A program made the position numbers and the translations under genes. Shown here piece by piece: positions 33,722 to 34,804 of a stretch of 44,053 nucleotides of DNA (the first letter of the stretch is position 1; the number at the start of each line of letters is the position of its first letter). Source of the DNA: Lachnospiraceae bacterium (GTDB taxonomy: Bacteria > Bacillota > Clostridia > Lachnospirales > Lachnospiraceae); NCBI GenBank assembly GCA_017449765.1, contig JAFTFE010000136.1, forward strand, positions 1 through 44,053, given 5' to 3'. The notes below the pieces were generated by a model. The model ran no database searches and was not told the DNA's origin. It saw only the letters and a program-made list of their open reading frames with translations.

Positions 33722-33766
33722 TTGACAGGAATAATAATCAATATATAATATTCCTTAAAAGGAATA
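33722..33766 (+). promoter_or_regulatory. Strong promoter with operator-like palindrome upstream of the toxin-XRE island
   Basis: TTGACA (33722-33727) and TATAAT (33744-33749) are separated by 16 bases. A perfect 18-bp palindrome (33749-33766, two 8-base arms TATTCCTT/AAGGAATA with two bases between) overlaps the predicted start site. That is where a repressor would act. The XRE protein encoded nearby is one candidate, but no second copy of the palindrome is visible to support this. Confidence 0.6.
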
Positions 33767-33856
33767 CCATTGTATGAATATAATGTACTTTACCAGGGAG
33801 CCGAAAGGGGAGCTGTTTCAGTCGCCGGACTTTTTTAAAGAAAGGGGCTGGTGCCA

Positions 33857-33946
33857 ATGGTCACTTACAACGATTTATTCGAATTTGTGATTATGCTATG
33901 CGCAGTTATAACTCTTGTTATATATACTTACAAGCATAAAAAATAG
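33857..33946 (+). CDS. Small hydrophobic toxin peptide, copy 1 (putative holin-like type I toxin)
   Basis: A 29-residue peptide starts MVTYNDLFEFVIMLCAVI and ends in KHKK. One membrane helix spans about residues 8-24, with a positively charged tail. This matches the group called putative holin-like toxins in Firmicutes (Hol_Tox-like), whose members are usually type I toxins. The ribosome site GAAAGGGG lies 10 bases upstream. The stop codon is part of a bidirectional terminator, and an antisense promoter faces it. A -10-like TATAAT lies at 33779-33784, with no good -35. Confidence 0.82.
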   Translation: MVTYNDLFEFVIMLCAVITLVIYTYKHKK

Positions 33947-33980
33947 CACCCTCTGCTGACAACGGTCGGTGCTATTTTTT
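33938..33980. terminator. Bidirectional terminator of toxin 1 and its antisense RNA
   Basis: A perfect 13-bp stem (AAAAAATAGCACC at 33938-33950, complement at 33968-33980) has a 17-base loop. It has A and T runs on both sides, so it can end transcripts in either direction. The toxin stop codon lies in the left arm, so sense and antisense RNAs overlap here. Confidence 0.88.
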
Positions 33981-34033
33981 AGCTACAAGCTATGCCGGCG
34001 GCTGGACGTGCCCCAGCGTTCGGCTCTCTTGTT
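33938..34033 (-). ncRNA. Predicted antisense antitoxin RNA, copy 1 (about 96 nt)
   Basis: A consensus promoter on the minus strand, TTGACA (34063-34068) and TATAAT (34040-34045) with a 17-base spacer, would start an RNA near 34033. It would end at the shared terminator (33938-33980). It overlaps only the 3' end of the toxin mRNA. Its 5' part contains GGCA and CCAGCC stretches complementary to UGCC and GGCUGG just before the toxin start codon, with a 3-base bulge. No RNA data support this; it is inferred. Confidence 0.7.
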
Positions 34034-34039
34034 AAGTAC

Positions 34040-34068
34040 ATTATATGCAAGAAATATGCTTTTGTCAA
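34040..34068 (-). promoter_or_regulatory. Antisense RNA promoter, copy 1
   Basis: Perfect TTGACA and TATAAT on the minus strand with a 17-base spacer. The -10 box and following leader are an inverted copy of the sense-side -10 and leader at 33779-33826. Confidence 0.8.
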
Positions 34069-34086
34069 ATAAAAAGGAGGATAAAA

Positions 34087-34350
34087 ATGCAAAAATCAGA
34101 TTTACTTTTATCAAATGGAGAATTAATAGAAAGTCAGGATATTAACATCGAATTAGAAGAACAACTCAAAAAGCTTCTTATATATTCAAGATTAGAATGT
34201 AACTTAACGCAAAAACAGCTTTCCGAAAAATCAGGTATACGCCAATCAAATATAAGTCGTATAGAAAACGGAAGCTGCGTTCCTACTATCGAAACTATAA
34301 AGCAGTTAGCTCATGCTATGGGTAAAAAAGTCAAAATCGAATTTATTTAA
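34087..34350 (+). CDS. XRE-family helix-turn-helix regulator between the toxin repeats
   Basis: I chose ATG at 34087 (87 residues) because AGGAGG lies 6 bases upstream. The frame remains open upstream without a ribosome site. The HTH domain covers about residues 24-80, with recognition-helix-like IRQSNISRIENGSCVPT. It looks like the antitoxin or regulator of a HigBA- or RelBE-type pair, but no nuclease-toxin partner gene is present. Its upstream region overlaps the antisense promoter of repeat 1, and toxin copy 2 begins 82 bases after its stop. It may regulate the small toxin unit or be a lone survivor. Confidence 0.9.
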   Translation: MQKSDLLLSNGELIESQDINIELEEQLKKLLIYSRLECNLTQKQLSEKSGIRQSNISRIENGSCVPTIETIKQLAHAMGKKVKIEFI

Positions 34351-34431
34351 TTAAATACAGTGTACTTAACCAGGGAGCCGAAAGGGAGCTGTTTCAGCCG
34401 CCGGACTTTTTAAAGAAAGGGGCTGGTGCCA

Positions 34432-34521
34432 ATGGTCACTTACAACGATTTATTCGAATTTGTGATTATGCTATGCGCAGTTATAACTCTTGTTATACTT
34501 ATAATCAAGCATAAAAAATAG
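34432..34521 (+). CDS. Small hydrophobic toxin peptide, copy 2
   Basis: A 29-residue peptide is identical to copy 1 at 26 positions. Residues 23-25 differ (LII in place of YTY). The ribosome site is identical. With no good promoter of its own, it is probably reached by read-through from the XRE gene. The stop codon is again inside a bidirectional terminator. Confidence 0.8.
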   Translation: MVTYNDLFEFVIMLCAVITLVILIIKHKK

Positions 34522-34557
34522 CACCCTCTGCCTAGCAAACACTGGGTGCTATTTTTT
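34513..34557. terminator. Bidirectional terminator of toxin 2 and its antisense RNA
   Basis: A perfect 13-bp stem (34513-34525 and 34545-34557), same arms as copy 1, has a 19-base loop that differs in sequence from copy 1. Conserved arms with a changed loop suggest the structure matters. Confidence 0.88.
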
Positions 34558-34611
34558 AGCTACACAATTTTGCCGGCGGCTGGACGCGCCCCAGCGTTCG
34601 GCTCTCTTGTT
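34513..34611 (-). ncRNA. Predicted antisense antitoxin RNA, copy 2 (about 99 nt)
   Basis: TTGACA (34641-34646) and TATAAT (34618-34623) on the minus strand with a 17-base spacer would start an RNA near 34611 that ends at the shared terminator. Its 5' region is almost identical to antisense copy 1. It could therefore act on both toxin mRNAs through the shared leader and ribosome-site pairing, although its loop differs. Confidence 0.68.
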
Positions 34612-34617
34612 AAGTAC

Positions 34618-34646
34618 ATTATATGCAAGAAATATGCTTTTGTCAA
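34618..34646 (-). promoter_or_regulatory. Antisense RNA promoter, copy 2
   Basis: Perfect TTGACA and TATAAT on the minus strand with a 17-base spacer, identical to copy 1. Confidence 0.8.
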
Positions 34647-34669
34647 ATAAAAAAGAGCATGCGCAGCAT

Positions 34670-34793
34670 GGCGGTCAGATGGTGGTATGGCTGTCTGAAT
34701 TTCAAAAGTCTAAATTAGTGCGAAGGTATATATACCGTGCACTATCCAAGAACCTAACAAATTCAGACAGCCATACCTTTCCATCTGACCGCC
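34670..34793. repeat. Long imperfect palindrome C (124 bp) downstream of prmA
   Basis: The outer arms, 34670-34702 and 34759-34793, pair with 32 of 33 positions and a 2-base bulge. A nested hairpin is at 34716-34744. On the minus strand the region past the left arm is rich in T, so the element probably terminates the heat-shock operon. It also separates that operon from the toxin-XRE island. Confidence 0.87.
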
Positions 34794-34804
34794 CATACTC
34801 GCCA

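What the first reader, a model, noticed from the sequence alone, without database searches (positions are those of the whole stretch)
33722..34655. Duplicated type I toxin-antitoxin unit flanking an XRE regulator
Two nearly identical ~297-bp direct repeats each encode a 29-residue hydrophobic peptide, a bidirectional terminator and a convergent antisense promoter with perfect TTGACA and TATAAT. An XRE gene lies exactly between them. The geometry resembles par/Fst-type convergent RNAs. The combination with an XRE regulator, and with one copy reached only through that gene, is not a layout I know from described systems.
Basis: partly seen in the sequence, partly recalled or inferred. Interest (0 to 1): 0.85.

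Follow-up and report, generated by a model that had tools for sequence, protein, structure and literature searches.

The report
Twin antisense-toxin units around regulator
Two copies of a small membrane-peptide gene, each facing its own antisense RNA promoter, flank a regulator gene in a Lachnospiraceae bacterium; the units look like relatives of a known Bacillus toxin-antitoxin system, and their clustering with the regulator is the unusual part.

Summary
Two 92%-identical units each hold a 29-codon hydrophobic ORF, a central hairpin and a perfect convergent antisense promoter, with an XRE gene between. They belong to a Lachnospiraceae family of type I toxin-antitoxin cassettes, closest to BsrG/SR4 (Hol_Tox). 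Across 65 aligned units the arms covary. Arm mismatches are tolerated as G·U on the toxin strand, and the outer central hairpin shows the opposite. This points to a toxin mRNA closed 5' to 3', with the central hairpin kept mainly as the antitoxin's terminator. XRE is HigA-like; its promoter and palindrome lie upstream of unit 1, and three unit-free paralogs carry the same promoter-palindrome. Unit(s)-XRE-unit(s) is kept in all 4 congeneric genomes (of 37) with the XRE ortholog, and XRE is under purifying selection. The type I reading is supported. Par/Fst-like layout is partly matched, but membership is not. The XRE linkage is conserved locally and not obligatory. How the closed mRNA acts, ON or OFF, is only predicted, and unit 1 itself goes against the ON prediction. 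Nothing about expression or toxicity was tested.

The parts
33722..33749 (+). Promoter TTGACA-16-TATAAT, best read as the XRE gene's own promoter, now upstream of unit 1
   Evidence: same promoter directly before unit-free XRE paralogs in L058, L072, L073
33750..33765 (.). Palindrome ATTCCTTAAAAGGAAT, likely XRE operator (inferred)
   Evidence: exact matches (one base free) at only two places in the 3.4-Mb genome, each before one of the two XRE genes; reversed-pattern control 0; kept with at most one change in the other orthologs and paralogs
33779..33784 (+). Unit 1 own sense -10 TATAAT (weak -35 TTAAAA at 33755)
   Evidence: 10 of 12 matches; -10-like hexamer at the same place in the other units listed, which required at least 3 of 6
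33775..33805 (+). Unit 1 left arm: 5' strand of predicted panhandle P1
33819..33829 (+). Unit 1 leader segment that can pair with the ribosome-binding site (P4) or with the 3' tail (P2)
33840..33851 (+). Unit 1 Shine-Dalgarno region GAAAGGGGCTGG
   Evidence: sequence
33857..33946 (+). Unit 1 toxin ORF, 29 codons
   Evidence: codon-position test
33938..33980 (.). Unit 1 central hairpin; antitoxin U-tract is antisense to the toxin's Lys-Lys-stop codons
33981..34049 (+). Unit 1 3' tail with right arm (3' strand of P2 and P1)
34040..34068 (-). Unit 1 antitoxin promoter TTGACA-17-TATAAT
33938..34033 (-). Unit 1 predicted antitoxin RNA (ends inferred)
   Evidence: promoter and hairpin positions; no transcript evidence
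34087..34350 (+). XRE/HTH_3 gene, HigA-like, 87 codons
   Evidence: (HTH_3 1.1e-13); dN/dS 0.03-0.19
34356..34361 (+). Unit 2 degenerate sense -10 TACAGT
   Evidence: sequence
34355..34382 (+). Unit 2 left arm
34432..34521 (+). Unit 2 toxin ORF, 29 codons
34513..34557 (.). Unit 2 central hairpin
34558..34627 (+). Unit 2 3' tail with right arm
34618..34646 (-). Unit 2 antitoxin promoter TTGACA-17-TATAAT
34513..34611 (-). Unit 2 predicted antitoxin RNA (ends inferred)
   Evidence: no transcript evidence

Best explanation
Each unit is a self-contained type I toxin-antitoxin cassette of the BsrG/SR4 (Hol_Tox) kind. Shown by comparison: a conserved 29-codon membrane peptide; a convergent antisense promoter; arms at the two ends that covary; a leader segment that covaries with the ribosome-binding site; and mismatch patterns saying that the arms pair in the toxin-strand RNA and the outer central hairpin in the antitoxin-strand RNA. 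Inferred: the toxin mRNA runs through the central hairpin into the tail and closes 5' to 3'; the antitoxin RNA is the antisense of the tail, so its 5' end looks like the mRNA's own leader, and the two compete for the tail. My preferred mode, the least certain step: leader-tail pairing pulls the leader off the ribosome-binding site (ON), and antitoxin binding, or stopping at the central hairpin, lets the leader cover it again (OFF) and exposes the duplex to degradation. The XRE gene is a HigA-like regulator whose autoregulatory promoter came to lie in front of unit 1. XRE therefore probably depends on read-through of unit 1 and, if it represses its palindrome, also represses transcription into the toxin units.
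For: Family and frame; codon positions. Toxin kinship: one family-B relative passes the Hol_Tox cut-off (27.6 against 23.3); 11 of 23 family-A members match Hol_Tox at E <= 0.1, best 4.6e-4; BsrG itself passes. Arms: RNAalifold finds P1 unaided, and 32 of 39 predicted pairs have changes on both sides; P1 90.2% of cells paired against 80.3% shuffled, covariation score 0.383 against 0.192 (0 of 500), slid controls at most 0.136; the two bases behind CCG, not used to find the arms, agree in 56 of 66 units against a mean of 12.6 and a maximum of 23 in 20,000 re-pairings. Strand test: P1 log ratio 0.92 [0.59, 1.40] in 65 units and 0.90 [0.45, 1.69] in a strict set of 24; outer hairpin -1.54 [-3.25, -0.65] and -1.32 [-2.60, -0.22]. 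Leader-SD helix 86.7% against 76.1%, 0 of 500. Switch: predicted SD opening 3.83 kcal/mol full-length, 6.66 truncated, 6.67 with tail blocked; easier by >1 in 49 of 65, harder in 4; shuffled tails 6.59. bsrG folds with the same 5'-3' closure, z -6.2, the window unit z -6.5. Review passages: SR4 binding at the bsrG 3' end extends SD sequestration from 4 to 8 bp (PMC7430163, PMC6562991 passages). XRE.
Against: No transcript, toxicity or structure data. Window unit 1 goes against the switch: its SD is predicted harder to open full-length (5.3) than truncated (4.3), unit 2 also slightly (4.9 against 4.3). Both window hairpins have good T tracts on the sense side, so the toxin mRNA may end there; across units the sense-side tract is only modestly poorer (4.0 of 6 T against 5.5 of 7 A). 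The inner part of the central hairpin shows the toxin-strand pattern (GU 0.79, AC 0.44), and P2 has no strand preference. Columns 4-7 of P1 probably lie before the start site yet covary too, which an RNA-only reading does not explain. Units were found by arm similarity, which inflates the paired fraction in the first 17 arm positions. P2 and P4 cross, and no pseudoknots were modelled. Unit 1's peptide has no Pfam match even at E 10, and unit 2's is below the cut-off.
Confidence: 0.62

Rival explanations
1. Closed-and-silent model: 5'-3' pairing keeps the full-length toxin mRNA untranslated, as in hok or AapA, and 3' trimming activates it.
For: Same kind of 5'-3' closure; the AapA3 paper describes a full-length mRNA inert through a 5'-3' interaction and active after 3' truncation (PMC6733600 passages). 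Window unit 1 fits this sign better.
Against: In 49 of 65 units the closed form is predicted to open the SD rather than hide it, with shuffled tails as control.
Confidence: 0.25
2. Par/Fst-like module: toxin and antitoxin end at one shared bidirectional terminator, kiss through its loops, and the antitoxin also covers the ribosome-binding site; the arms are secondary.
For: Convergent promoters, central hairpin with good T tracts both ways in the window, SD-sequestering leader hairpin, some CCAGCC-GGCTGG complementarity.
Against: Arms are inverted, not direct repeats. Antitoxin 5' domain against SD region is hardly better than shuffled (mean z -0.77; 13 of 65 below -1.5) or non-cognate (-18.9 against -17.9). 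No Fst match in Pfam. The outer hairpin is kept on the antitoxin strand.
Confidence: 0.2
3. The inverted arms are the terminal repeats of a small mobile element (MITE-like), and their covariation reflects a shared transposase.
For: Arms bound the unit exactly, units sit in varied places, columns before the likely start site covary too, unit 1 sits inside the XRE leader and B units come and go.
Against: Strand-asymmetric mismatches and covarying inner helices P2 and P3 are not expected of terminal repeats alone. Target-site duplications and excision were not tested systematically.
Confidence: 0.12
4. XRE and the units are neighbours by accident of insertion and have no functional link.
For: Unit-free paralogs with the same promoter-palindrome (3 of 3); most units have other neighbours.
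Against: Kept in 4 of 4 ortholog-bearing genomes with XRE at dN/dS 0.03-0.19; no plus-strand promoter-like site between unit 1 and XRE under the scan's thresholds; XRE/CI-like genes are the commonest upstream neighbour type found (9 of 40, two of them this cluster).
Confidence: 0.45

Closest known systems
bsrG/SR4 (Bacillus subtilis SPbeta), with bsrE/SR5, bsrH, txpA/RatA; Pfam Hol_Tox
   Same: Small Hol_Tox-like membrane peptide; convergent antisense RNA complementary to the mRNA 3' part; SD sequestered in the leader; bsrG mRNA predicted closed 5' to 3'; prophage settings.
   Different: Here the predicted antitoxin start abuts the end of the closing helix, so promoters mirror each other and both RNAs begin alike; in bsrG the antitoxin-strand promoter-like site lies about 65 nt or more beyond the mRNA terminator. 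Window peptides do not pass the Hol_Tox cut-off.
par/Fst (pAD1)
   Same: Convergent RNAs, central hairpin, leader hairpin over the SD, ~30-residue peptide (PMC7472228, introduction read).
   Different: Inverted arms instead of direct repeats DRa/DRb; no Fst match in Pfam; antitoxin pairing over the SD not supported above controls.
aapA/IsoA and hok/Sok
   Same: 5'-3' long-distance mRNA closure and SD-covering hairpins (PMC6733600 passages).
   Different: Predicted effect of closure has the opposite sign in most units; antitoxin is antisense to the tail; Gram-positive hosts.
HigA-type XRE antitoxins next to Gp49-like toxins
   Same: HTH_3 protein; 5 of 7 homolog loci inspected have a Gp49 (PF05973) gene directly upstream; own palindrome at the promoter.
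   Different: No Gp49-like gene beside the window XRE; its place before the gene is taken by a type I unit.

Membership tests
Type I toxin-antitoxin (general) | conserved small hydrophobic ORF | tested here: met
Type I toxin-antitoxin (general) | antisense promoter opposite the toxin gene, conserved | tested here: met
   (search required a -10-like element, at least 4 of 6)
Type I toxin-antitoxin (general) | peptide is toxic and RNA neutralises it | not testable with these tools
   needs expression in a laboratory strain
Hol_Tox / BsrG-TxpA | peptide passes the PF16935 cut-off | tested here: inconclusive
   window peptides: none and 15.5 bits against 23.3; relatives: one of four B peptides passes, 11 of 23 A peptides match weakly
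Hol_Tox / BsrG-TxpA | antitoxin complementary to the mRNA 3' part | tested here: met
   by position of promoters and hairpins; transcript ends not known
Hol_Tox / BsrG-TxpA | mRNA 5'-3' closure and leader-SD helix as in bsrG | tested here: met
   predicted and covarying:
par/Fst | Fst-family peptide | tested here: not met
   no Fst match in Pfam scans
par/Fst | direct repeats DRa/DRb read by both RNAs | tested here: not met
   arms are inverted; antitoxin-SD pairing near controls
par/Fst | convergent promoters and shared bidirectional terminator | tested here: inconclusive
   convergent promoters met; hairpin strand pattern mixed: outer antitoxin-strand, inner toxin-strand
Type II HigBA | XRE antitoxin next to its toxin gene | tested here: not met
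   no Gp49-like ORF beside window XRE; homologs have one
MITE-like mobile element | target-site duplications and empty sites | not tested
   empty or decayed loci seen (L143, L145) but boundaries not analysed

The most novel reading that the evidence does not exclude
A two-layer toxin control: a HigA-like repressor protein and an antisense RNA guard the same type I toxin. Unit 1 is lodged between the XRE promoter-operator and the XRE gene, so XRE autorepression also shuts off toxin transcription, while the antitoxin RNA flips the toxin mRNA by taking its 3' tail away from the leader, a tail that would otherwise uncover the ribosome-binding site.
Probability: 0.27. Interest if true: 0.65.

Novelty: new variant of a known kind. 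Interest (0 to 1): 0.5.

Why it matters
It ties an apparently large gut-bacterial family of tiny toxin genes to the Bacillus BsrG kind and gives a strand-resolved, testable RNA model: which strand folds where, and why toxin and antitoxin RNAs start alike. If XRE does control the units, it would be a case of protein and RNA layers guarding one toxin. Six units in one genome, and units beside phage repressors and integrases, also bear on how prophages and hosts in this family keep each other in check.

Tried and rejected
Rfam: no match at gathering thresholds in the window. Phages: the 29-aa peptide gave only two chance-level hits (E about 4) and the unit DNA none; viral contigs: 4 and 13 stretches by peptide pattern. 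Plasmids: none. Sense-antisense kissing through identical arms: rejected by inspection, the arms are not self-complementary. Par-like antitoxin pairing over the SD: near controls. Simple gene conversion between arms: disfavoured because consistent sense-antisense differences (GGG against GAG) persist while the CCG-following bases covary. My early reading that the XRE neighbourhood is purely incidental (note) was dropped. Early counts contained misoriented rows: at least three of 67 and two of 66 (L016 plus and L061 plus); alignment A2 mended this and also left out L201, whose arms were out of register, and added window unit 1. Redundant units (8-mer similarity 0.35 or more) were dropped before these counts. 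Papers: eight searches listed nothing that by title or abstract start describes these Lachnospiraceae units or a type I unit in an XRE leader; this says nothing about papers not held. Structure prediction was not run.
Full report
1. What is there. Two direct repeats, about 33775-34072 and 34354-34650, are 92% identical. Each has a 29-codon hydrophobic ORF (ATG 33857 and 34432), a central hairpin with A and T tracts, and a minus-strand TTGACA-17-TATAAT (34068-34040 and 34646-34618). A plus-strand TTGACA-16-TATAAT lies at 33722-33749, and an XRE gene (34087-34350) lies between the units. What was missed: each unit is bounded by inverted arms of 28-31 nt, so the predicted toxin mRNA and antitoxin RNA begin with nearly the same letters.

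2. A family of cassettes. In the same genome the unit search hits six distinct places, two of them the window pair: four with a peptide like the window's (family A) and two with a second type (family B, MSSYEE.. and MSIYET..). One lies between an integrase-like and a repressor-like gene (L003), one near phage-like genes (L005), one near another integrase-like gene (L007). In a sample of the family 52 of 397 genomes have a match, in the genus 6 of 37, own genome included in both. A strict peptide pattern hit 4 of 392 genomes drawn from the order, all four in the window's family, and 13 stretches of viral contigs. Two relatives carry an A and a B unit in tandem (L059, L060). In 45 family-A units the frame is under selection: diversity 0.178, 0.104 and 0.43 at codon positions 1-3, pooled pN/pS 0.236.

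3. Which toxin kind. Unit 1's peptide has no Pfam match even at E 10; unit 2's matches Hol_Tox (PF16935) full length but below the cut-off (15.5 against 23.3 bits). Of 23 family-A peptides 11 match Hol_Tox at E <= 0.1 (best 4.6e-4) and 8 a PHROG called holin. One of four B peptides passes the cut-off (27.6) and another just misses it (22.0). BsrG of Bacillus subtilis passes (34.5). So kinship with Hol_Tox is likely for the family and not proven for the window peptides alone.

4. RNA structure by comparison. Units were found by arm similarity plus a -10-like element, made non-redundant, and 65 were aligned with both window units. RNAalifold finds, unaided, a helix between the two arms (P1), a second leader-tail helix (P2, CGCCGG with CCGGCG), a tail hairpin (P3) and the central hairpin (T); 32 of 39 pairs have changes on both sides. 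For P1, 90.2% of cells pair against 80.3% shuffled, the covariation score is 0.383 against 0.192 (0 of 500), and slid versions reach at most 0.136. Detection inflates the paired fraction in the first 17 arm positions. The two bases behind CCG were not used in detection, and they agree in 56 of 66 units against 12.6 expected and 23 at most in 20,000 re-pairings (two rows of which were misoriented). A leader segment also covaries with the ribosome-binding site (P4: 86.7% against 76.1%, 0 of 500).

5. Which strand folds. A G·U in one strand is an A·C in the other, so mismatch types tell the strand. In P1 (columns 8-22) G·U keeps 0.83 of its chance level and A·C 0.32; in the outer central hairpin G·U keeps 0.06 and A·C 0.35. 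Bootstrapped log ratios are +0.92 [0.59, 1.40] and -1.54 [-3.25, -0.65] for 65 units, +0.90 [0.45, 1.69] and -1.32 [-2.60, -0.22] for a strict 24. So the arms pair in the toxin-strand RNA and the outer hairpin is kept on the antitoxin strand. P3 leans to the toxin strand (9 G·U, 0 A·C), P4 likewise (0.48 [0.28, 0.77]; strict set [-0.03, 0.68]), P2 has no preference. Against a simple picture: the inner central hairpin leans to the toxin strand (0.79 and 0.44), and P1 columns 4-7, probably before the start site, behave like the rest (0.73 and 0.30). The hairpin's antitoxin-side A tract (mean 5.5 of 7) is only modestly better than its toxin-side T tract (4.0 of 6). Because the toxin's last codons are Lys-Lys-stop (AAAAAATAG), they double as the antitoxin's U-tract.

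6. How it may work. Folding predictions give SD opening energies of 3.83 kcal/mol for full-length toxin RNA, 6.66 when cut at the central hairpin and 6.67 with the tail blocked as by antitoxin; full length is easier by more than 1 in 49 of 65 units and harder in 4. Shuffled tails give 6.59, tails of units with other arm letters 5.99, with the same letters 5.21. This suggests that the tail uncovers the ribosome-binding site and the antitoxin takes the tail away. Window unit 1 is one of the four exceptions (5.3 against 4.3) and unit 2 also leans that way (4.9 against 4.3), so the sign of the switch is not settled; a hok/AapA-like closed-and-silent mRNA is the main rival. Pseudoknots were not modelled, and P2 and P4 cross. 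The bsrG mRNA folds into the same closed form (-103.1 kcal/mol, z -6.2; arms), as does window unit 1 (-98.1, z -6.5). Reviews say that SR4 binds the bsrG 3' end and extends SD sequestration from 4 to 8 bp (passages of PMC6562991 and PMC7430163).

7. The XRE gene. It is HTH_3 (1.1e-13). Of seven homolog loci whose neighbours I listed, five have a gene directly upstream that passes the Gp49 model PF05973, the HigB-like partner of HigA-like antitoxins (the HigB label is recalled). The window XRE has no such neighbour. The promoter 33722-33749 and palindrome 33750-33765 also stand directly before a 63% paralog in the same genome (L058) and before two more paralogs in other genomes (L072, L073), all without a unit; the palindrome pattern occurs at only those two places in this genome. 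So the promoter is best read as XRE's own, and unit 1 sits between it and the XRE ribosome-binding site. No plus-strand promoter-like site was found between unit 1 and XRE, yet XRE is under purifying selection (dN/dS 0.03-0.19 in six pairs); it probably depends on read-through of unit 1.

8. Is the linkage conserved? In 37 congeneric genomes, 4 have the XRE ortholog (own, G407, G408, G424). All four have an A unit before XRE and at least one unit after it: window A-XRE-A; L069 (G407) A-XRE-A, its first unit split over two contigs (L128); L071 (G408) A-XRE-B-A; L070 (G424) A-XRE-B and a remnant of A. Window unit 2 begins with the same letters as unit B of L070, which suggests that B was lost by recombination between left ends (inference). 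A fifth genome, G422, shows only unit remnants on two contig ends beside the same neighbours (L125, L143); G397 shows no unit within the 1.5 kb fetched next to prmA (L145). Elsewhere, of 66 units 40 have a co-directional upstream ORF within 250 bp; 9 of these 40, two from this cluster, are HTH_3, often phage-repressor-like. The linkage is thus conserved locally and recurrent in kind, not obligatory.

9. Known or new. Closest is bsrG/SR4; par/Fst shares the layout in part but fails on repeats and peptide. Differences from bsrG: the antitoxin starts right at the end of the closing helix, making the cassette nearly mirror-symmetric, and the cluster with a HigA-like gene. I rate it a new variant of a known kind. 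Eight paper searches listed nothing that by title or abstract start describes it. I read one section each of PMC7472228 and PMC6562991, passages of these and of PMC6733600, PMC7430163 and PMC6563280, and the outline with abstract of PMC11352940.

Noticed in passing
L023 about 1680-1720; L125 end and L143 start: The same insertion-sequence-like end (TGACCCCAAAAAGTTAGACAAA; family label not tested) sits in the loop of the central hairpin in two different genera, suggesting that such hairpins are insertion targets.
   Followed up: no
window 34655-34800: An imperfect inverted repeat of about 45 nt per arm lies between unit 2 and prmA; in L143 and L145 its middle holds roughly 200 extra bases.
   Followed up: no
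L003 1505-2492: A family-A unit lies between a phage-repressor-like gene (upstream, same strand) and an integrase-like gene in the same genome.
   Followed up: partly
L059, L060: Two different unit types (A and B) stand in tandem in two other genera.
   Followed up: partly
alignment A3, one of 40 upstream neighbours: One upstream neighbour matches ThsB_TIR (Thoeris); it was not among the ten I scanned singly, so the locus is not identified.
   Followed up: no
L058 2328-4000: The unit-free XRE paralog stands near two ORFs that look like an AbiE pair (label recalled, not tested).
   Followed up: no
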